Shown one piece after another: positions 27,881-39,420 of a stretch of 64,000 bases of DNA (the first letter of the stretch is position 1; each line of letters opens with the position of its first letter). The position numbers and the translations under genes are program-made. The stretch lies in the NCBI GenBank assembly GCA_026184775.1, contig JANCYW010000009.1, forward strand, positions 62,001 through 126,000, given 5' to 3'. The notes beneath the pieces were generated by a model. The model was not told where the DNA came from and ran no database searches. It was given only the letters and a program-made list of their open reading frames with translations. Source of the stretch: Cyanidium caldarium (lineage: Eukaryota > Rhodophyta > Bangiophyceae > Cyanidiales > Cyanidiaceae).

Positions 27881-28350
27881 GGTGGGCGCCAGAGCGTTCC
27901 AGACAGGCGGCGCGGTGCCGAGTAGAGGCAGTGTCGCGAACGGGAATGAAACGAGAAGCGCAGGTCGGATCCGAAGGCGTGCAACTCGAGGATGCGTAAC
28001 AAAGGGGAGAGCGTCGAGTGCAGTGGCCAGTGGATGTGCGTAGGAGAGGAGACAGGAGGCGAACAGTCCATCGAGTCCACTGCACCTATAGTCGCGGTTC
28101 CGAGGCAGACTGGAAGAAACGTGCGACCCTGCTCCGGCGCTGCGCACACGGACCCGATATCCGAATATCTTCAACAGACACTCTTGTCATGCAGCATACG
28201 GACCTCAACGCTCGCCCAGTGCGTCGACCTTGACACGTCGCCCGTGCGCGCCCTCGAGCACAGCGCTACACAACCGTGCATCATTCTGCGTGCTCGCGGG
28301 AAGCTCTCGTCTCTGCGCCTCCACACCTGCGAGCACGACGAGTTCGCGCC
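27881..28350. other. Intergenic, divergent promoter region
   Basis: About 470 bases between PFKFB and the GOST-family gene, on opposite strands. No gene, TATA box or repeat that I can support. Confidence 0.45.
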
Positions 28351-30207
28351 ATGCACGGCCATCGGTGGTATGTAGGGAGCGGGCGACGGCGTCGCCCCTT
28401 ACGCTTCCTCCTCTTTCTCCTTTACGGCCTGCTTGTCCTCGCGTCGCTGCTCGCACTCGGCCAACCGGTCGTCGCATCGGTGTACAGGCGCCAACTTCGC
28501 TTCGGCTCGGCGTCCGACGATGGCAGCTGCTGTTGGGTGCTCAGCGACGGCGCGCTGGTGGCTAGCGACGACTGGGGCGGTCAGGCCGAAGAGGCGTTTA
28601 TTCTGGTGCAAGGCGCCGGGAGGCGGTTGGCGCCAGTGCAGGATCGGGCCTCCAACACCACCGTCTACCTGGAGATGGCGGTGTTCCACAGCTCGCAGCG
28701 CGGCTTGATCGGATACCGCGTGTCCCCCGATGCCTATCCCGAGTACTGCTGTACGGAGGAGCTGGCGCTGATGGCCGCCGGCCAAGGCGTGCCCGGCTGT
28801 CGCTCGGAGGACGTCGGCCGGCTCATCGTGGCTGCCGAACGCGCCCAGGTGATTTGGGACACCGCCGCTGCAGATATGGAAGGAATATCGGGCGCGGCGA
28901 GGCGAGTTTTGCATAGCCACTGGGCTGACCTGGGGGACGGCACCTCCGCGCATCCAGCGACCACCACTGCTGTGGACCTCCGCGCCGTTGCACACCCTGC
29001 ATCGCCCCACCGCAGCCTGTTTCTACATGCGCTGGCGCTGCCGGCCAATCGCAGCGTATATCAGCGGGTGTACGAGCGGTTTCCCATCACCCAGAGCGGA
29101 GTGTACGATGTGGTGTTGGCATCATGCACCGATGCACCCGTCACCTTTCGAGGTGCTATCGAGTTTCGCAGCCCGTACGGATACCTGCCCGGACAGCTGC
29201 ATGGCCTGCTGCCCTTCTTCGGCTGGCTGGTCGTGGCGTATCTGGTGGCGACGGCCGTCTGGGTTGTGGCGTGTCACGCGCGCACCCACCTGTTGCATCC
29301 GGTGCAGTACGGCGTCACCGCGCTATTCTTCTTCGGTATGCTGGAATCGTTCTTCAACTACGAAGTATACTATTGGGCGAACCGCGACGGCCAGCCACTC
29401 TGCTGCCCGCCGAGCGGCGTGGAGGTGCTGGGCGATCTGCTGGCCACGATGAAACACACCCTCACCAAGGTGCTGGTGCTGGCGGTGAGCATGGGCTTGC
29501 AAGTGGTGACGCCGTCGCTGCCGCCTCAGAAGCTGATTCGACTGGTCTGGTTCGCCGTCGCCTACTCCATCGGCACGCTGGCGCTCGAGTTGCTGGAGAC
29601 CGTGGGGCATCTGGGAGAGGCGCGCCTGTGGGTGGCCTTGATGGCCATCCTGCCGGTGTCGGTTTTGGAGGCGGTGTTTTACGCGTGGACATTTGCAGAG
29701 ATGCGCAACAACATCGCCTATCTGGTCAGCCGGCAACGCACCGAGAAGCTGCGCATGTACATCCGTTTCGTGGTGTTGCTGATCGTCGTGGCCGTGGTGG
29801 GCTTGGCATTTGAGTTGTACGTCATCTGGACCAACGCGCGGCGGCCGCAAGACGTGGAGCGCTGGTTCGACCGCAACTGGCGGCGCTTTTGGCTGCTGGG
29901 CGGCTTTCCCACTCTCGGCGCCGGCGCATTCTACGACGGTTGGTATTTCGTGTTGCTGCTGGGTATCGCCGCGATCTGGCGACCGGCGCACGCCACGCTG
30001 ACCTACCATTACATGCCTGAGGCGGAAGATGCGGAGACCGTCACCCAGGTTGCCGTGCAGGCCGAGCGCGACACTGTCAAGAGCGCGCCTGGGCGTCGGG
30101 CGGACCCGGCGAAGCGAAAACTGCAGGCGCGGTTCGACCTGGGCGACGACGCCGACGACGCCGACGGCGATGAAGAGCGGGCGGAGATGCTGGCCAAGCG
30201 GGATTAG
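28351..30207 (+). CDS. GOST-family seven-transmembrane protein (GPR107/TMEM87 type)
   Basis: 618 residues. A hydrophobic signal/anchor (about 13-38) leads into a luminal domain with cysteines and a later region like the family's GOLD-type domain. Then seven hydrophobic segments occupy about 280-560: the block ALFFFGMLESFFNYEVYYW, LTKVLVLAVSMGLQVV and the end FYDGWYFVLLLGIAAIWRP are typical of Lung-7TM/GOST proteins of Golgi and endosome membranes, which act in trafficking. The C-terminal 60 residues are charged and cytosolic. No RGD or other ligand motif is evident. It could be an orthologue of GPR107/108 or TMEM87; I cannot separate these. Confidence 0.75.
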   Translation: MHGHRWYVGSGRRRRPLRFLLFLLYGLLVLASLLALGQPVVASVYRRQLRFGSASDDGSCCWVLSDGALVASDDWGGQAEEAFILVQGAGRRLAPVQDRASNTTVYLEMAVFHSSQRGLIGYRVSPDAYPEYCCTEELALMAAGQGVPGCRSEDVGRLIVAAERAQVIWDTAAADMEGISGAARRVLHSHWADLGDGTSAHPATTTAVDLRAVAHPASPHRSLFLHALALPANRSVYQRVYERFPITQSGVYDVVLASCTDAPVTFRGAIEFRSPYGYLPGQLHGLLPFFGWLVVAYLVATAVWVVACHARTHLLHPVQYGVTALFFFGMLESFFNYEVYYWANRDGQPLCCPPSGVEVLGDLLATMKHTLTKVLVLAVSMGLQVVTPSLPPQKLIRLVWFAVAYSIGTLALELLETVGHLGEARLWVALMAILPVSVLEAVFYAWTFAEMRNNIAYLVSRQRTEKLRMYIRFVVLLIVVAVVGLAFELYVIWTNARRPQDVERWFDRNWRRFWLLGGFPTLGAGAFYDGWYFVLLLGIAAIWRPAHATLTYHYMPEAEDAETVTQVAVQAERDTVKSAPGRRADPAKRKLQARFDLGDDADDADGDEERAEMLAKRD

Positions 30208-30331: not shown

Positions 30332-30766
30332 TCACGCCCAACCCAGCACCTCGAGCATGGTTTTCTTCAGCGGCTCCGGCTTGCCGTTGCACAAATACCA
30401 ATAGTAGACCGCGAGCGCCGCTTCGTGCACGCGACGCGGCAAGCGCGGCAGCGTCAACGCCAACCGTTCCTCCAAGTGCTGTTCCGCCGCGTCAGCCTCC
30501 TCTGCATGATCTTTCGGGGCCACGCGTCTCAATTCGGGCGCTTCCAACGTGTCAATGTCGTGGATGGAGCGAATGCGCCGCTCGGACGTAGGCCGCCGCT
30601 TGCGCAGAAAGAACTTTTTGGCGTGATACCGCACCTGTGCCACCGTGCGCGTCTTCACGTGCCGCGCCACCGCCTCCCAACGCCGCTTCCGGTTGGCCCC
30701 GCCAGCCGGCCACTGCAGCGCCTCCAGAAAGCGGCGATGCTCCTCCAACGTCCAATGCGACTTCAT
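30332..30766 (-). CDS. Single-MYB transcription factor, SHAQKYF-like class
   Basis: 144 residues. One MYB repeat at the N terminus: HWTLEEHRRFLEALQ, a central RRWEAVARHVKTRTVAQVR and the closing YHAKKFF, which corresponds to SHAQKYF in plant CCA1/KUA1-type and in Dictyostelium MYB factors. The tryptophans at both ends of the repeat are in place. Helix 3 is basic and would bind DNA. After it is an acidic linker, then a hydrophobic C-terminal helix (AALAVYYWYLC). The family commonly binds I-box or evening-element-like sites; target genes cannot be read from here. Confidence 0.8.
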   Translation of the reverse strand: MKSHWTLEEHRRFLEALQWPAGGANRKRRWEAVARHVKTRTVAQVRYHAKKFFLRKRRPTSERRIRSIHDIDTLEAPELRRVAPKDHAEEADAAEQHLEERLALTLPRLPRRVHEAALAVYYWYLCNGKPEPLKKTMLEVLGWA

Positions 30767-31212: not shown

Positions 31213-34200
31213 ATGCGCACGGCACGGTTCGTGGGTGTTGTGGCGATATTCATGGCGCTCCTCTTCCCTCTCGCGCCCTCGCACGCGGCATCGCTGCAAG
31301 AGGCAACCGTGCTGTACGCTTCCCATTTCACCAACGCCACCGGATGTCCGTGTTCGCTGCCATACGGCTCGCTGGAAGTGATCAACTCGGTGAACGTGTC
31401 CGCGCCGACCACTTGGACCGTGCAACCCGATGCTGGCCTGGTGTGCGAGTCGGCCGTCAGCGATGGCAGCGCCGGCCAACCGCAGCAGGTGCCCAAGCTC
31501 GGCACCTTCGCCTACATAGATATGCCCGAGGCGTTCGTCAACTGGACCGACTACGGCGCCAGCGTGATGGTACAGACCGGCGCCAACAGTACCGTCGGCC
31601 TGATGGTGCGCGTGTCCGATGGCAGCGACTACTATCGCCTGGCGTGGAGTGACGGGCAGTACCTGCGGTTCGAACGGGCGCGCCCGGGCAACCAGTTCCA
31701 GGTGCTGGCCGACTCCGGATCGTTGTCGTCCAGCATGCTATCGTTCCCCACCGACGGAAGCGCGTTCGAACTGGCGGTGACCTGCGTCGATGCCCAGTTC
31801 GACGTGTCGGTGAACGGGCAGCAGCCGTGGCCGCTCATTCAGGACAACTCCACTGACGCCCTGTACACCGGCTCGGCGGCGGTGTACGCCTTTGACAATG
31901 CCGGCGTGGCGTTCAGCAACTGGAGCGTGTACGGCGTGGCCGGCGTTCAGCCGTCGCCGTCGCTGCCGCCATCGCTGCAGACGCCGCTGGCCCAGCCGCT
32001 GGCGCCCGCCGTGCAACTTCCGCCCAACATCTCCGCGCGCCTCTTCAACTACACCTTGCGCTACCCGCAGCTGGATCTCACGACGTACACCGCGCCGCTG
32101 GACGATGCGCTGCGCAACGCCATCAACAACGCGCTCGGTTTCACGGACACCTGGCTGGTGCAGACGCGCCTCGGATCGGTGCTGGCCAGTTACGTCAGCG
32201 CGCTGCCGCTCGACGATACGGTGGTGAGCGCCGCCACCAACGTCTCCGCCGCGCTCACTGCGCTGGTGTGCAATGCGTCGTTCGCCTTCGACCTGGGCGT
32301 GGTGGTGGACTGCTCCAACGGCAGCATACCGGTGGCCGCATGGAGCCTGGACGCTGCCCCCGCCGCCGGCAGCTCCAGCAGCCACGCCGTGATCATCGGG
32401 GTGGTGGTGGCAGTGGTGGTGGCCGGGCTGGCAGGCGCCCTGCTGATCGGCTACTGGACGTGGCGCCGCCTGCGCCACCGCCGCACCACCCAACCGCACC
32501 GCAAACACCACCTCAAAGTGGTCGACATCGAGTCGGCCGATGCGGTGGCCGAGCGCGTGCGCGCCACCATCGGCGCCGAGCGCTACGACCGCCTGAGCCG
32601 AGCAGGCGTCCTGGATGCGGTGCTGGCGTCGGCGGCTGCCGCCAATCTCGCCGGCACCACCGACACCGTACCGGCCTGGTCGCTGCGAGATCGGACGCGC
32701 GACCATCTGCTGACGGCGCTGCTGGAGTCGGCCAAACCGAAATACGGCCACTGGGAGGTGTTGGTGGTGGATGAACGCACGTTGCGCATCACCTCGGCAG
32801 CGTGCCGCCTCAGCGACCTCATCGCCCGCGGCGTCACCCTGGTGCAGTCGCTGGAGGAGCTGGCCACCGCCGGCCACACCGCACTGCGCCTGAACACCAT
32901 CTTCTTCATGTCGCCCGGTGAGGCATCGTTTGCGTTGCTGGCCAAGGCGTTCGTCAACATGTCTCCGCGCAGCGCCGGAGCGCACGTCATCGGCTCGAAG
33001 CGTCTGCCGGAGACGCACGTGTTCACCGCGTCGCGCGTGTCCGACGCCACGCTGACATCGTTGCGCGAGCAGCCGCAGCTGTTTCAGAGCATCTCCACTT
33101 TCCAGGAGCTGAACGTGGACTTTTTGGCGCTGAGCGAGCGGGTGTTCTCGTTGGATCGCCCGCACGCACTGCTCACGCTGTACGGTCGCCGGGCGCCGCT
33201 GTCGGTCGCAGGCGGAGCGAGCCGAAGCCACTCGCGGCTCTCGCCGCTGCTGCTCGAGTGCCGCGAGATCGGTCGCCAACTGGCCACCGTATTCGGCGTG
33301 CTGCGGGCGCTGCGCCCGTCCATCGAGATCCACACCACCTCGGTGGCCAACGACGCCACCATGGAGATCGCTCAGGCGGTCAAAGGGGCGTTGGAGTGTC
33401 TGCAGCAGGATCTGCAGGTGGGAGCGCACTCGCCGTTGGCAGCACGCGCCGCCAAGCTGCTGATTGTGGACCGCGCTGCCGATCCGATGACGCCGCTACA
33501 ACACGACGAGACGTACGAATCGTTTGTGCACGACGTGTTGCGGTGGCCCGGCACCGACAGCACGCCGCGCAAACCCCACAAGGAACCCCGGCAGCAAAGG
33601 TGCGCAGAGACGGTGGATGCGCCGCCAGATGACGGCGATGCCGTCGCGAACACCACCCGCATTCCTGACGTCGACGATCCGACGTGGAACGCGTTGCGCC
33701 ATCTGCACATTCATGATGCCATGGTGCGCATCCACGAGGAGCTCGAACTGTTCCTCACCTCCAATGCCGCCGCTCGCATGCACCAGCGCGTCTCGTCCCG
33801 CGTGCACGCCGCCGACGGTGACATCGAGGCCGCCGCGCCCGATGGCAACAGTGCGCTCGGTGCATCCATCCGCGACCTGGCCGAGGCGGCGCGCGCCGCG
33901 CCCGAATACCGCGAGACGGTGGAGCGGCTGTCATTCCACCTGGAATTATTGGAAAAGTGCGCGGCATTGTACGAATCGCGCTCGTTGGCGGCGGTCATCC
34001 AGGCCGAGCGCGCGCTCATCTCCGGGCGCCACGCCCGCACCGGCAAGCGCGAGAAGAGCCACGAGCAGCGGCGCCGACTGGAGAACTTGCTGCACGACCC
34101 CACGGTGGATGGTCTGTCCAAACTGCGGTTGATCCTGTTGTGGATTGCCACCCGCGGCACCGATACGGACACGTTGGTGCGCTGGCTGTCGGAAGCCGAA

Positions 34201-34713
34201 ATCGACGAGGACGGCCGCACCGCCGTCCGCGCCTTTATCGAGTGCTTCCAGGCCGATCGTCACAGCGCCGAAAGTGCCCGGCGGCAGCGACGCAACCGCA
34301 ACGGGGCACCGCTGCTGCGCGACATCATCGAGCGCGCCTGCGATCTGGATGGCAGCAACGACGAGCTGACCCGCAGCCGCAGCCACGACGACGCCGACGA
34401 AGAGCCCGGCGGCCCGGCCGCACCCCGCACCCCGCTCAGCTTGCGGCGGCGTCTCCGCTCACCGATACCTTTGCTGCGTCGCGGACGGCAAAACGAGAGC
34501 GTCAGTTGTGTGCCCAGCGGAACCAGTGGCGAACCGACGCTGGTGGTCATCTTCGTGGTGGGCGGCGTGAGCCACGCAGAAGCGCGCCTCGCCTACGAAA
34601 TATCCGCCGCCGCCGCCGCCGCTCCCAATACACAGGTGCTCATCGGAAGCACACGCCTCATTTCCGCTGCCGAATACATCGCCGAGATGTCGGCCATCTT
34701 CCGAGACGCCTAA
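31213..34713 (+). CDS. Transmembrane Sec1/Munc18 (SM) protein with a luminal lectin-like domain
   Basis: 1166 residues in one uninterrupted frame. Order of parts: a signal peptide (about 1-25, ends PSHA); a luminal region (26-390) with eleven N-x-S/T sequons and a beta-sandwich-like block (STVGLMVRVSDGSDYYRLAW); one membrane helix (about 393-415, VIIGVVVAVVVAGLAGALL) with a stop-transfer RRLRHRR; then a Sec1/Munc18 domain (about 490-1160). SM hallmarks: WEVLVVDERTLRITS, TIFFMSPGEASF, LLIVDRAADPMTPLQHDETY, FVVGGVSHAEARLAYEI and LIGSTRLISAAEYI. SM proteins chaperone SNARE assembly in membrane fusion and are normally soluble. There is no methionine between the helix and the SM domain that could start a separate protein. 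The SM subclass (Sec1, Sly1, Vps33, Vps45) is unclear. Confidence 0.9.
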   Translation: MRTARFVGVVAIFMALLFPLAPSHAASLQEATVLYASHFTNATGCPCSLPYGSLEVINSVNVSAPTTWTVQPDAGLVCESAVSDGSAGQPQQVPKLGTFAYIDMPEAFVNWTDYGASVMVQTGANSTVGLMVRVSDGSDYYRLAWSDGQYLRFERARPGNQFQVLADSGSLSSSMLSFPTDGSAFELAVTCVDAQFDVSVNGQQPWPLIQDNSTDALYTGSAAVYAFDNAGVAFSNWSVYGVAGVQPSPSLPPSLQTPLAQPLAPAVQLPPNISARLFNYTLRYPQLDLTTYTAPLDDALRNAINNALGFTDTWLVQTRLGSVLASYVSALPLDDTVVSAATNVSAALTALVCNASFAFDLGVVVDCSNGSIPVAAWSLDAAPAAGSSSSHAVIIGVVVAVVVAGLAGALLIGYWTWRRLRHRRTTQPHRKHHLKVVDIESADAVAERVRATIGAERYDRLSRAGVLDAVLASAAAANLAGTTDTVPAWSLRDRTRDHLLTALLESAKPKYGHWEVLVVDERTLRITSAACRLSDLIARGVTLVQSLEELATAGHTALRLNTIFFMSPGEASFALLAKAFVNMSPRSAGAHVIGSKRLPETHVFTASRVSDATLTSLREQPQLFQSISTFQELNVDFLALSERVFSLDRPHALLTLYGRRAPLSVAGGASRSHSRLSPLLLECREIGRQLATVFGVLRALRPSIEIHTTSVANDATMEIAQAVKGALECLQQDLQVGAHSPLAARAAKLLIVDRAADPMTPLQHDETYESFVHDVLRWPGTDSTPRKPHKEPRQQRCAETVDAPPDDGDAVANTTRIPDVDDPTWNALRHLHIHDAMVRIHEELELFLTSNAAARMHQRVSSRVHAADGDIEAAAPDGNSALGASIRDLAEAARAAPEYRETVERLSFHLELLEKCAALYESRSLAAVIQAERALISGRHARTGKREKSHEQRRRLENLLHDPTVDGLSKLRLILLWIATRGTDTDTLVRWLSEAEIDEDGRTAVRAFIECFQADRHSAESARRQRRNRNGAPLLRDIIERACDLDGSNDELTRSRSHDDADEEPGGPAAPRTPLSLRRRLRSPIPLLRRGRQNESVSCVPSGTSGEPTLVVIFVVGGVSHAEARLAYEISAAAAAAPNTQVLIGSTRLISAAEYIAEMSAIFRDA

Positions 34714-35616: not shown

Positions 35617-37164
35617 TTACCGTATCATGTCGGGGATCATCGGGAGGGCAGCACCGAACGGGGCCGCCGGCATCGTCGCCATCGACGGCGGAAGCGGTGC
35701 ACCACTGCCACCGTGGCCTGCGGCAACTTCCCCTGTCCCCTCCTGTGGTCGTGTCTCATTCCGTCCGCCTGCATTCGTCAAGTGGCGCTCGTGTCGCGAC
35801 AGCACCAAGAACATGGTATGTTGCATAAACGCCGCACAGGTGAACAACGCCAACCAACTGAAACCGAGGGGAAACGAGAAAAAGTAGAGGTGAAACGCTA
35901 ACATGTAGGCTGCAAACGCTCGCGGCAACACGTACGCCGGAATGCCGCTGCGCCAGGTGAGCATCACGACCACCTCCGCCAGCCACGCCAACACCAACAC
36001 GCAGAACGCGAGCAGCTGGTTGTCGAAAAACTCGAACAAAAAGAACAAAATGCCCGTGATGATGGGCACCAGCACCAGCGCGTGCATCGAACTGCTGAAC
36101 AGCGCCCCGGCGTACGGCGTGCGGTGTCGGGCGTGTTGAATCTCCACGGCGAGTTTGGTGATGCGCGCCTGCACCTCGCGCAACGCAAAGGCGATCAGTG
36201 CGCTGATGGTGAACATCACGTAAACCGAGGTGAGCAGCACGCCCAGTTTCAACAACACGATGTCGGTGAAGTGGGCGGTGCGGGCATACAACTCGCCGAT
36301 GAACACGCGACCGATGTTGTACATGTCGCCGCTGTGTACGTTCAGCACGTAACCGTCGGCGCCGGGGTGCGGTCGCCGCGTCCTCCCGTCCGGCATCGGC
36401 TCGTCACGCAGGAGGTATGCGAATGCATTCAGCGCCACCGTCTCGCTGCCGACAAAGAGCTCCATCACGCTGCGCAGCAGTGGCGACGAGCCAAAACACA
36501 GATGGTGCGCTGGCAACGTCAACCGAAGCATCGACACGTTGTGGGCGCGCCGCGCGTCCTCGCTCAGCAACAGCAACCCCTTCTCGGTGGCGAATTGGTA
36601 TCTCTGTACGCGCGGCAGCAGGCGCTGCAGCAACCAGTGTCGCCAGGCGGGCGCGTGCTGTTCGGACGCCGCCCAGTGACGCGCCGGCGGCACTCGCAGC
36701 TCCACGATATCGTAGGCGCGAATAAAGTGCACCGGGGCGTGGCCGGTGCGCTGCGACTCGGGCACCTGCGCCAACAGCGCCGAGGCGCATCCACACCGGT
36801 TCACGTAGCTCAAGTGCAGCGTGGTGAGCAGCGCCAGCAGCGCCAGGGCGTAGATGAAGCTGGCAACCTCCAACTGCTTGCCGGCACTGCACATGCACCG
36901 CAACATGCCCCGCGAGAGCCACTGTCGCCACGGATAGGACCGTACGCGGTGGCGTGGGTCAGTGCCGCCGTCCAAGGACGCCGACTGCCGCCTCGGGTGA
37001 TACCCCCGATGGCGCAGAAGCGACTCCACAGAGGCCGTCGCCCCCTCTGCCGTTGTCCATCGTTCCGCCTCCGGGACCCTGGTTCGGGAGGGAAGAGAAT
37101 CCACCTCCGCAGAGAATGGACTGGCACCAGGTGCCCCGTCACCAGCCATCCTAGCGTCCTCCAT
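35617..37164 (-). CDS. Membralin (TMEM259), ER-associated degradation membrane protein
   Basis: 515 residues. Membralin is a multi-pass ER protein that joins an ER-associated degradation complex. Visible: an N-terminal disordered part (1-90), a first helix near 97-120 (ASFIYALALLALLTTLHL), a luminal domain (120-290) and a cluster of C-terminal helices. The blocks ITGILFFLFEFFDNQLLAF, VLVLAWLAEVVVMLTW and WLALFTCAAFMQHTMF match the conserved membralin core. An N-glycosylation sequon (HNVS) lies in the luminal part. Two near-adjacent ATGs (37164, 37149) could start it. It is divergent from trehalase with 189 bases between starts. Confidence 0.88.
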   Translation of the reverse strand: MEDARMAGDGAPGASPFSAEVDSLPSRTRVPEAERWTTAEGATASVESLLRHRGYHPRRQSASLDGGTDPRHRVRSYPWRQWLSRGMLRCMCSAGKQLEVASFIYALALLALLTTLHLSYVNRCGCASALLAQVPESQRTGHAPVHFIRAYDIVELRVPPARHWAASEQHAPAWRHWLLQRLLPRVQRYQFATEKGLLLLSEDARRAHNVSMLRLTLPAHHLCFGSSPLLRSVMELFVGSETVALNAFAYLLRDEPMPDGRTRRPHPGADGYVLNVHSGDMYNIGRVFIGELYARTAHFTDIVLLKLGVLLTSVYVMFTISALIAFALREVQARITKLAVEIQHARHRTPYAGALFSSSMHALVLVPIITGILFFLFEFFDNQLLAFCVLVLAWLAEVVVMLTWRSGIPAYVLPRAFAAYMLAFHLYFFSFPLGFSWLALFTCAAFMQHTMFLVLSRHERHLTNAGGRNETRPQEGTGEVAAGHGGSGAPLPPSMATMPAAPFGAALPMIPDMIR

Positions 37165-37353
37165 AGTTCATGGCAACCGACACTCCAACAACCTCTTTCA
37201 GGTCACCGCCGCCAACGCCTCCCGTATCCTGCACCACCACCGCGAGAGCCCCGACACGCTCCGCCACCGAGCGCGAGCGATGCGAGGCGCCGCGCGGGAG
37301 CAGCGCCACCGCGTTCCGCGGAGACCATCGTGCCATCGCTCGTCGCTCATCGC

Positions 37354-39420
37354 ATGTTCCGGCTCGGGTCTCTGGCGGACGAATTCCCCAGCACCACCAT
37401 ATACTGCGCGGCCAACTGCGCCCAGCGGCGTTCCGGTTGCGGCAAGTCGTTGCTGTCGGTGGTGCAACGCATCGGCGTGTTCGACGACTCGAAGCAGTTT
37501 GTGGATTTGCCGCTGCTGTCGGGGCGCACGCCGGAGCGCATCCTCGACTACTGGGACAATGAGTTTGGGCGAGTGGTACAGGAGGAGGAGTTGCAGATCA
37601 CTGAGGATGGCAGCGTGCTGTCGGATGACCCGGACGTGAGCGAGAAGATGGTGCGGGCGGGCGGCGGGCCGCTGAACGACCTGGAGGAGGTGCGCAAGTT
37701 TCTGCTGGAGAATTTCGATTTCTCGCCCGGCGGCGACACCCTGCCGTGGAAGCCGGACGATCTGCCGTCGCCGAGAGAATCTTTCGGGAATGGTGCGGAG
37801 GCGGCATCGGACGGCCATCCGCCGGCGACTCGGTGCGAGCGGCTGTTGCGCGCGCTGCCGCATCCACTGGCGCAGTGGGTCCAGGCGTTGCTGCGGCTGT
37901 GGGGCACGCTCGGTCGTCAAACGTCCCCTGCGGTGTTAGACGAGCCGCAGCGGTACAGCCTGCTGCCGATGCGCTATCCGTTCATTGTGGCCGGCGGCCG
38001 CTTCCGCGAATGCTACTACTGGGACACGTACTTCATCGTGCGCGGCTTGCTGATATGCGACATGTGGAAGACGGCGCGCGGCTGCGTGGAGAACTTGCTC
38101 GACATGGTGGAACGTTTTGGGTTTGTGCCCAACGGCGCGCGAGTGTACTACCTGAACCGGAGCCAGCCGCCGTTCCTGTCGGAGATGGTCATGGCGCTGG
38201 TGGAGACGGCGCCGGCCGACGTCGACCTGGCGGCACTGCTGGATCGAGCGCTGCCGCTGCTGGAGCGCGAATACGCCTTTTTCATGAATCACCGACTGGT
38301 GGAGATGGGCCGCGGTGCGACGCTCAATCGATATCACGCCCCATCGGCCGATGGACCGCGGCCGGAGTCGTTCCGGGAGGACTGGCAGCTGGCCGAGGAG
38401 TGCGGTATGATGGTGCGCGGCGATCCGCGTCGCGAGGAGCTGTTCGTGGCCATCACTGCAGCCGCAGAGAGCGGTTGGGATTTCTCGTCGCGCTGGTGTC
38501 GCGACCGCAAATCGCTGGGCACCATCCGCACCCACAAAGTGGTGCCGGTGTGTCTGAATAGCGTGCTGCTGCGGTATGAGTTGAACCTGGCGCGGTTGCA
38601 TGCCCTGCGGGCGGCGATGACGTCGGGGTCGTCGCGCCCACCGCTGCCGTCGACGCATGCCCTGTTGCAGGCGCCTGCTGCTGCTGCTGCTGCTGCTGCT
38701 GAAACGTCAGCAGCCACCACCGCGTTGCCGCACACCACGACCGCATACCTGGAGGCGGCGCGAACGCGCGCCCAGACCATGCAGACGTATCTGTATCACG
38801 AGGCGCACGGCCAGTGGTTCGATTTTGACGCCGAGTCCAACATGCCCACGTTGCGCACCGCGGGCGGCGTGCAGCGCTGCGTGTGCGCCAGCAACTTTTT
38901 CCCATTGTGGGCGGGTGCGTTGGACGTGCTGCCGGATGCGGACGCCCAGCGCCTAGCCGACCGCGCCGTGCAGACCATGCGCGAGTGCGGTCTGGTGGGG
39001 CGCGCGGGCGTCGCCGCCACGCTCGTAGACGACTCGGGCCTACAGTGGGATTACCCGAATGTCTGGCCTCCGGTGCAGCTGTTGTGGCTGGAGGCGCTCC
39101 AACAGATCGCACAGCGTTGGGCCGGGCAGGTGGTGGCGTTCCAGGCGGCCAAGTTGCGCACGCAGATCGTCACTGCCTTTCTGAACACCGTCTACGCCGG
39201 TTGGCGCAAGACCGGCATCATGTACGAACGATACGACGTGCGTGAGCCGGGGATGCCGGGCGTCGGCGGCGAGTACAACACCCAGACCGGCTTCGGGTGG
39301 ACGAACGGCGTGGTGCTGGTGTTGTTGGAGGCGTTCGCGCCACATTTGTCGGTGTCGAAAGAGGATGAAATCCAAACGGGCTCAGCCGAGAGGTCATCGT
39401 CACACTCGCCAGACGCCTGA
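37354..39420 (+). CDS. Trehalase, GH37
   Basis: 688 residues. Hydrolyses trehalose to two glucose. GH37 signature 1 is present as AGGRFRECYYWDTY (about 210) and signature 2 as QWDYPNVWPP (about 565). The catalytic acid Asp in ESGWDFSSRW and the base Glu in MYERYD are both retained, as is DSKQFVDLPL near the N terminus. There is no signal peptide, so it is probably cytosolic, like neutral or bacterial-type enzymes. An alanine run coded by GCT repeats (38673-38701) is inserted in the catalytic barrel, in a loop near residue 445. The C-terminal 20 residues are Ser-rich. The stop is 7 bases from the stop of the convergent RAB3GAP1 gene. Confidence 0.96.
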   Translation: MFRLGSLADEFPSTTIYCAANCAQRRSGCGKSLLSVVQRIGVFDDSKQFVDLPLLSGRTPERILDYWDNEFGRVVQEEELQITEDGSVLSDDPDVSEKMVRAGGGPLNDLEEVRKFLLENFDFSPGGDTLPWKPDDLPSPRESFGNGAEAASDGHPPATRCERLLRALPHPLAQWVQALLRLWGTLGRQTSPAVLDEPQRYSLLPMRYPFIVAGGRFRECYYWDTYFIVRGLLICDMWKTARGCVENLLDMVERFGFVPNGARVYYLNRSQPPFLSEMVMALVETAPADVDLAALLDRALPLLEREYAFFMNHRLVEMGRGATLNRYHAPSADGPRPESFREDWQLAEECGMMVRGDPRREELFVAITAAAESGWDFSSRWCRDRKSLGTIRTHKVVPVCLNSVLLRYELNLARLHALRAAMTSGSSRPPLPSTHALLQAPAAAAAAAAETSAATTALPHTTTAYLEAARTRAQTMQTYLYHEAHGQWFDFDAESNMPTLRTAGGVQRCVCASNFFPLWAGALDVLPDADAQRLADRAVQTMRECGLVGRAGVAATLVDDSGLQWDYPNVWPPVQLLWLEALQQIAQRWAGQVVAFQAAKLRTQIVTAFLNTVYAGWRKTGIMYERYDVREPGMPGVGGEYNTQTGFGWTNGVVLVLLEAFAPHLSVSKEDEIQTGSAERSSSHSPDA

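What the first reader, a model, noticed from the sequence alone, without database searches (positions are those of the whole stretch)
31213..34713. Sec1/Munc18 protein anchored by its own transmembrane helix and carrying a luminal domain
Seen: one uninterrupted frame codes a signal peptide, a 365-residue region with eleven N-glycosylation sequons and a beta-sandwich-like block, one membrane helix with a basic stop-transfer, and a full Sec1/Munc18 domain. Known: Sec1, Sly1, Vps33 and Vps45 are soluble and reach membranes by binding syntaxins. Inferred: here the SM domain is permanently tethered, with a glycosylated domain in the lumen or outside the cell. It could act as a receptor-coupled regulator of fusion, where luminal cargo or cell-surface signals set SNARE assembly. 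There is no methionine between helix and SM domain, so a simple two-gene misread is unlikely.
Basis: partly seen in the sequence, partly recalled or inferred. Interest (0 to 1): 0.85.

Follow-up and report, generated by a model that had tools for sequence, protein, structure and literature searches.

The report
Membrane-anchored SNARE chaperones in red alga
A hot-spring red alga carries proteins that look like cell-surface receptors on the outside but end inside the cell in a Sec1/Munc18 domain, the normally free-floating helper that lets vesicles fuse with membranes, which suggests a direct link from the cell surface to secretion.

Summary
Confirmed. Window 31213-34713 is one coding frame (1166 aa): signal peptide, N-glycosylatable luminal region, one transmembrane helix, basic stop-transfer, complete Sec1/Munc18 (SM) domain. 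The genome fits Cyanidium caldarium 063 E5. It is not a misread: codon usage favours this frame throughout, no Met lies between residues 175 and 566, and a protein from another public contig (52% identical) has the same luminal-TM-SM order. Nor is it alone. Of 10 SM genes over the Pfam cut-off, five have signal peptide, ectodomain, TM and SM. The other five lack such an anchor: Sly1, Vps45 and Vps33 types, a Sec1 type, and one starting MGNALCG. The window's luminal core models as a galectin/laminin-G jelly roll (low confidence). The membrane-proximal module of a paralogue is homologous to that of a receptor-like kinase, so receptor ectodomains are coupled to both kinase and SM domains. A 2026 paper reports 10 SM genes in this species, 6 mainly expressed in walled diploid cells; the parts I read mention no membrane anchor on them. 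Most likely: Sec1-type SMs fixed in wall-facing membranes, acting on SYP1 syntaxins. Ligand gating is inferred, not shown.

The parts
31213..34713 (+). whole reading frame, 1166 aa plus stop: transmembrane Sec1/Munc18 protein
31213..31287 (+). predicted signal peptide (residues 1-25)
   Evidence: read from the sequence (n-, h- and c-regions); no predictor was run
31288..32382 (+). luminal/extracellular region (residues 26-390), 11 N-glycosylation sequons
31492..31941 (+). concanavalin-A-like (galectin / laminin-G) jelly roll, residues about 94-243
   Evidence: model confidence low (block means of pLDDT 32-63, best 52-63 at protein residues 116-215)
32005..32367 (+). membrane-proximal luminal module (about residues 265-385) shared with the C2 paralogue and, weakly (pairwise E 0.001), with the C7 receptor-like kinase; motif G-S-V-x-A-x-Y
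32383..32463 (+). transmembrane helix (within residues 391-417)
32464..32508 (+). basic stop-transfer stretch (residues 418-432)
   Evidence: sequence
32509..32757 (+). cytosolic linker without methionine (residues 433-515)
32758..34683 (+). Sec1/Munc18 domain (residues 516-1157), Sec1/Munc18-1 type

Best explanation
A type I, single-pass membrane protein of the Cyanidium secretory pathway and most likely of the wall-facing plasma membrane. Its cytosolic end is a Sec1-type SM domain that templates or licenses SNARE assembly on the two SYP1-type plasma-membrane syntaxins; its glycosylated, lectin-fold ectodomain holds this SM at particular places of the extracellular matrix or growing wall. It therefore fixes where, and perhaps when, wall-building exocytosis occurs. 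Shown at sequence level: one frame, topology signals, SM domain, five-member family, ectodomain module shared with a receptor-like kinase. Inferred: plasma-membrane location, SYP1 binding, matrix binding, promotion of fusion.
For: Complete SM domain, closest to Munc18-2 and squid Sec1 (E 6.1e-36, 6.4e-34) and far from Sly1 (E 0.7). All 22 Foldseek PDB matches at E <= 0.001 for the SM model are SM proteins, best Munc18-1, E 1.1e-13, although the model is poor (pLDDT 47; TM-scores about 0.17). Five of the 10 SM genes over the cut-off share signal peptide, ectodomain, TM and SM; the other five have no comparable helix in their own coding sequence, apart from one marginal window of 1.82 inside the SM domain of the Vps33-like one. 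P0002 (52% over 93% of the query) has the same luminal region, TM and SM. The genome has Sly1-, Vps45- and Vps33-type SMs of its own, leaving Sec1-type work for these. The acidic residue of the N-peptide pocket (Munc18-1 E132, number recalled) is kept in window, P0002, C12 and C1, with a Leu at the F115 place. The syntaxin-1-type Qa-SNARE L034 begins MQDRLAELR and its look-alike L032 MDRLTELR (the start of L034 is my choice, one more in-frame Met lies upstream), like the Asp/Arg/Leu N-peptide described in PMC4224468 (passages). PMC13353863 (section 16 part 1 and section 17): 10 SM genes in C. caldarium, 6 mainly diploid (walled); two SYP1 genes, one diploid-biased, the other slightly haploid-biased below threshold in this species; its authors suggest that SM proteins act with SYP1 in wall building. 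The C12 paralogue lies head to head, about 0.2-0.3 kb between starts, with an R-SNARE gene.
Against: No expression, location or binding data for this gene; which 6 of 10 SM genes are diploid-biased is in a supplement that I could not read, and as I read it the paper's C. caldarium strain is NIES-551, not 063 E5. The pocket acidic residue is Pro in C2 and Asp in C3, and C3 lost the D of the DRxxD motif, so not all five need bind alike. A search of the PDB with the 23-residue N-terminus of L034 found no syntaxin. Only about 2 plasma-membrane-type syntaxins stand against 7 SMs that are not Sly1, Vps45 or Vps33 types, so some may do other work; the Sec1 type was tested against solved structures for 3 of those 7 (window, C12, one C17).
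Confidence: 0.55

Rival explanations
1. Secretory-pathway cargo receptor: the lectin-fold ectodomain binds glycoprotein cargo in Golgi or vesicles, and the SM domain travels with the vesicle to help its fusion.
For: Lectin-like fold; many phase-specific secreted proteins, and a largely proteinaceous wall in one 'C. caldarium' of unclear strain, are reported in PMC13353863; the C12 paralogue pairs with an R-SNARE gene, by type a vesicle-side SNARE.
Against: No Golgi retention or sorting signal was looked for; the tested syntaxin that fits is of plasma-membrane type.
Confidence: 0.17
2. Decoy or brake: a diverged SM domain that holds SYP1 at the membrane and blocks fusion until released, or that no longer binds SNAREs.
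For: Multiplication with long branches; pocket residues lost in C2 and C3.
Against: The window protein keeps the DRxxDPxxPLxH motif and the pocket acidic residue, and P0002 is 81% identical over 92% of the stretch 680-785, so its SM domain looks constrained.
Confidence: 0.13
3. Passive wall anchor or scaffold: the SM part acts as in any Sec1 and the ectodomain merely fixes it near the wall, without ligand-dependent switching. It differs from the best explanation only in that the ectodomain carries no information beyond tethering.
For: Long Pro/Thr- or Ser-rich stretches in the ectodomains of C12, C3 and C1 look more like stalks than ligand pockets; the Sec1-like C17 gene whose product begins MGNALCG may be lipid-anchored, so plain anchoring may suffice.
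Against: The luminal region of window and P0002 is nearly as conserved as the SM part (48% over the luminal region, 55% over the jelly roll, 60% over the SM part).
Confidence: 0.12
4. Assembly or annotation artefact: two genes fused in the record.
For: None found.
Against: Five loci on five contigs, another contig with the same order, one coding frame, no ATG for a separate SM.
Confidence: 0.02

Closest known systems
Sec1/Munc18-1 (Sec1 subfamily of SM proteins; KEULE in plants)
   Same: Full PF00995 domain; best sequence and fold matches are Munc18/Sec1 chains
   Different: Here a signal peptide, about 365 luminal residues and a TM precede the SM domain. I saw no such part in any SM protein of the records and papers that I looked at (PMC13353863 calls KEULE 'membrane-associated'; a transmembrane helix is not mentioned there)
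Receptor-like kinases, here Cyanidium C7:47456-49945 (L030:2457-4946:-)
   Same: Signal peptide (by eye), membrane-proximal module homologous to that of the C2 SM protein (pairwise blastp E 3e-6 without the TM), one TM, basic stretch, cytosolic effector
   Different: Effector is a PF07714 kinase (E 1.5e-54), not an SM domain
Galectins and LNS/laminin-G domains
   Different: No sequence match; sugar-binding residues not examined; model confidence low
10 SM genes of Cyanidiales reported in PMC13353863
   Same: Same number as the 10 over cut-off here and the same species; phase-biased expression reported
   Different: The passages and sections I read do not mention a transmembrane anchor or ectodomain on the algal SM proteins; supplements not seen

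Membership tests
Sec1/Munc18 (SM) protein family | Sec1 domain over the curated cut-off, full length | tested here: met
   222.4 bits against 30.7; profile 2-574 of 575
Sec1/Munc18 (SM) protein family | SM fold | tested here: met
   All 22 Foldseek hits at E <= 0.001 are SM proteins; but the model is poor (pLDDT 47, TM-scores about 0.17, global rmsd about 20 A in VIA)
Sec1/Munc18 (SM) protein family | Binds a cognate syntaxin or SNARE complex | not testable with these tools
   Only indirect: pocket residues, syntaxin N-termini
Sec1 subfamily (against Sly1, Vps45, Vps33) | Closer to Munc18/Sec1 chains than to other SM classes | tested here: met
   Munc18-2 E 6.1e-36, Vps45 E 2.7e-7, Sly1 E 0.7; own genome has separate Sly1, Vps45, Vps33 types. 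The tree did not resolve the place of each paralogue
Sec1 subfamily (usual, not defining, property) | Soluble, recruited by binding syntaxin rather than by an anchor of its own | tested here: not met
   Predicted signal peptide and TM. This is a habit of known members, not part of the sequence definition, so it makes a variant rather than excludes membership
Receptor-like proteins | Signal peptide, ectodomain, single TM, cytosolic effector domain | tested here: met
   By sequence only
Receptor-like proteins | Ligand binding that changes effector activity | not testable with these tools
   -
Galectin / concanavalin-A-like lectin | Jelly-roll fold | tested here: met
   on a low-confidence model
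Galectin / concanavalin-A-like lectin | Recognisable sequence profile or sugar-site residues | tested here: inconclusive
   No PDB sequence match for the window luminal region; galectin-8 only at E 0.9 with a three-row profile; the C2 paralogue matches PF06439 at E 0.012, below cut-off
SEA domain (membrane-proximal module) | Pfam SEA match | tested here: inconclusive
   None listed at the thresholds used; the resemblance of the GSV motif to the SEA cleavage site is recalled only

The most novel reading that the evidence does not exclude
A class of single-pass receptors whose intracellular effector is itself the SNARE chaperone: binding of wall glycans or matrix proteins outside directly switches Sec1-type SNARE assembly inside, without second messengers, one receptor per wall domain or life-cycle phase, built by exchanging the kinase of receptor-like kinases for an SM domain.
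Probability: 0.27. Interest if true: 0.93.

Novelty: new variant of a known kind. Interest (0 to 1): 0.8.

Why it matters
SM proteins are thought of as soluble; how exocytosis is aimed at particular spots of a surface is an old question. If half of the SM repertoire of a minimal eukaryote is welded to cell-surface ectodomains, place and timing of fusion may be set directly from outside. [quoted passage not shown]

Tried and rejected
Relatives in other named genomes: three protein searches gave only the window protein itself, P0002 (source 'lgn', unnamed, contig 5357), a Sec1-like P0003 (also 'lgn') and a plant P0004; no Cyanidioschyzon or Galdieria row appeared. In some searches only the 7992 and 7996 candidates sharing most words were scored, and the search is blind to distant relatives, so this says nothing about their absence there. 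P0002 as predicted starts inside the luminal region, so its signal peptide is not seen.

Single origin of the fusion: the 6 TM-SM rows were neither shown nor rejected as one clade (p-AU 0.361). Most inner branches are weak (7 of 10 open with 13 rows, 4 of 7 with 10 rows). Rows dropped: the Sly1, Vps45 and Vps33 types; the weak C7 match was in neither tree.

A kelch-like TM protein on C11 hit by the kinase ectodomain (E 0.0012) was first taken as sharing the module; without the TM the similarity fails (C2-kelch: 252 of 300 shuffles reach it; kinase-kelch: 7 of 300), so that claim is dropped.

The ectodomains of C12 and C3 found no convincing relatives (C12-C1 at E 0.001 may be low complexity). 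Weak Pfam hits of the window protein (TNFRSF12A stn, E 0.033; Csm6_6H, E 0.17) are below cut-off and span the helix; ignored. C3's EGF-like cysteines are by eye only; Pfam listed none. Both structure models were poor. N-peptide look-up in the PDB failed. NCBIfam gave nothing for the two ectodomains given. Papers: searches did not turn up a naturally transmembrane SM protein (listings only, apart from what was opened: passages of PMC1810245, PMC4224468 and PMC9812998, and of PMC13353863 the abstract, passages, section 16 part 1 and section 17). PMC1810245 (found; [quoted passage not shown] merolae ones divergent, and its main text does not hold the word 'transmembrane'. The library lacks most subscription journals. 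Supplements could not be read.
Full report
What is there. The frame from ATG 31213 to the stop at 34711-34713 is open and codes 1166 residues. Codon-usage log-odds trained on three neighbouring frames favour this frame over the other two + strand frames in 12 of 12 blocks (11 of 100 codons and a shorter last one), with no break at the helix. From the N-terminus: a signal-peptide-like start (by eye); a luminal stretch to residue 390 with 11 sequons, against 3 in the 750 residues behind the helix; a hydrophobic helix followed by RRLRHRR; a linker without methionine; and a complete Sec1 domain, residues 516-1157, 222.4 bits against a cut-off of 30.7. The first Met after the helix is 566, inside the SM domain, so no separate full SM protein can start from an ATG there.

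Organism. The window's assembly has 8,787,356 bases in 20 contigs and the window about 65% G+C. PMC9812998, Table 1 passage, gives Cyanidium caldarium 063 E5 as 8.79 Mbp, 65.7% G+C, 20 chromosomes. I take this as the organism; the tool names none.

A family, not a single fusion. A search of the own genome with PF00995 gave 11 matches, 10 over the cut-off. Of these 10, five have the signal peptide - ectodomain - TM - SM order: C9 (the window, 1166 aa), C12 (1321), C3 (1228), C2 (1214) and C1 (2126) (Pfam). Signal peptides and the start codons of the paralogues are my reading; marginal hydrophobic windows (1.72-1.82) also occur elsewhere in C9, C12 and C2. The other five have no such helix in their own coding sequence, apart from one marginal window of 1.82 in the SM domain of the C19 protein: a Sly1 type on C14, a Vps45 type on C12, a Vps33 type on C19, a Sec1 type on C17, and a second C17 gene, Sec1-like by its matches within the genome (best the window gene, E 3.7e-25), whose product starts MGNALCG, which by eye resembles a myristoylation/palmitoylation signal. 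C3 lacks the strong basic stop-transfer (2 K/R where the other four and P0002 have 5-7).

Relatives. Among proteins of public genomes and metagenomes, searches gave one close relative, P0002 (1084 aa, 52% identical), with luminal region, TM and SM; 48% identity over the luminal part, 60% over the SM part. This separate contig, and five loci on five contigs of the own genome, rule out a chimera. A tree puts the window with P0002 (100/100) and then C2 (98/98; 85/99 with more rows), and C12 with C1 (85/85; 92/91); whether all TM-SMs stem from one fusion is open (p-AU 0.361).

Shuffling of receptor parts. The C2 ectodomain found, besides itself and the window, a gene on C7 (E 4.2e-11): signal peptide, luminal part, TM, and a protein kinase domain (PF07714, E 1.5e-54). 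With the TM left out the homology of the membrane-proximal module stays (C2-kinase pairwise blastp E 3e-6, 0 of 300 shuffles reach its score; window-kinase E 0.001, 0 of 300 but close, 60 against a maximum of 57). Next to the C1 TM-SM lies a frame of 1201 codons, 40-44% identical to its ectodomain, that ends just before where the TM would be; in the 1.3 kb behind it no SM domain is to be seen, and one search lists none there: a secreted version. So these ectodomains exist coupled to SM, to kinase, or free.

How it may work. The SM domain is of Sec1/Munc18 type and keeps the DRxxDPxxPLxH motif and the acidic residue of the N-peptide pocket. The genome search with the SNARE model PF05739 found four matches; one, L034, is clearly of syntaxin-1 type, and it and its look-alike L032 begin MQDRLAELR and MDRLTELR. 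PMC4224468 (passages) says that Asp and Arg of the syntaxin N-peptide and a Leu/Phe make the key contacts with SM domain 1. A PDB search with the L034 N-terminus alone found no syntaxin, so this likeness rests on the eye. PMC13353863 (section 16 part 1, section 17) reports 10 SM genes in C. caldarium, 6 predominantly expressed in walled diploid cells, two SYP1 genes (in this species one diploid-biased, the other slightly haploid-biased below the threshold), and proposes that SM proteins may act with SYP1 in building the wall. I join these: TM-SMs are Sec1-type chaperones held by their ectodomains at the wall-facing membrane, working on SYP1. The step from 'held' to 'switched by a ligand' is inference. 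C12's head-to-head R-SNARE (PF00957; longin part by eye) is in keeping with a secretory role but could be chance (my rough estimate: about 1% for any of five genes with five R-SNARE hits among about 4,800 genes).

Novelty. In the paper searches listed under Tried and rejected I found no naturally transmembrane SM protein. The paper that counts these genes does not mention such an anchor in the parts that I read; its word 'transmembrane' occurs twice in the main text, in methods and references. I rate it a new variant of a known kind; if the ectodomain gates the SM domain it would be a new class of receptor.

Noticed in passing
G000:C7:47456-49945 (L030:2457-4946:-): Receptor-like protein kinase, 830 aa, whose membrane-proximal ectodomain is homologous to that of the C2 transmembrane SM protein.
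   Followed up: partly
G000:C1:559585-563187 (L046:1586-5188:+): Secreted, TM-less and SM-less tandem paralogue of the C1 SM protein's ectodomain, 40-44% identical, about 0.7 kb downstream of it.
   Followed up: partly
G000:C12:194491-194787 (between L012 and L048 genes): C12 transmembrane SM gene and an R-SNARE gene are head to head with about 0.2-0.3 kb between starts.
   Followed up: partly
G000:C17:57386-60412 (L017:1887-4913:+): Second Sec1-like gene on C17 without TM; protein begins MGNALCG (possible lipid anchor), and directly upstream of this first ATG the frame reads through a run of leucines.
   Followed up: no
G000:C7:233925-234113 (L018): Weak SM match (26.2 bits, below cut-off) at the C-terminal end of a long frame; possibly a very diverged SM protein.
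   Followed up: no
G000:C11:280123-282141 (L047:2624-4642:-): Kelch-like (by eye) surface protein with one TM; its similarity to the kinase ectodomain does not hold without the TM.
   Followed up: yes
window 28276-30204 (+), 30335-30766 (-), 35620-37164 (-), 36082-39417 (+): Neighbours: a GOST seven-TM protein, a small Myb-domain protein, a membralin-like protein and a trehalase whose long frame overlaps the membralin one on the other strand; none is a SNARE.
   Followed up: no
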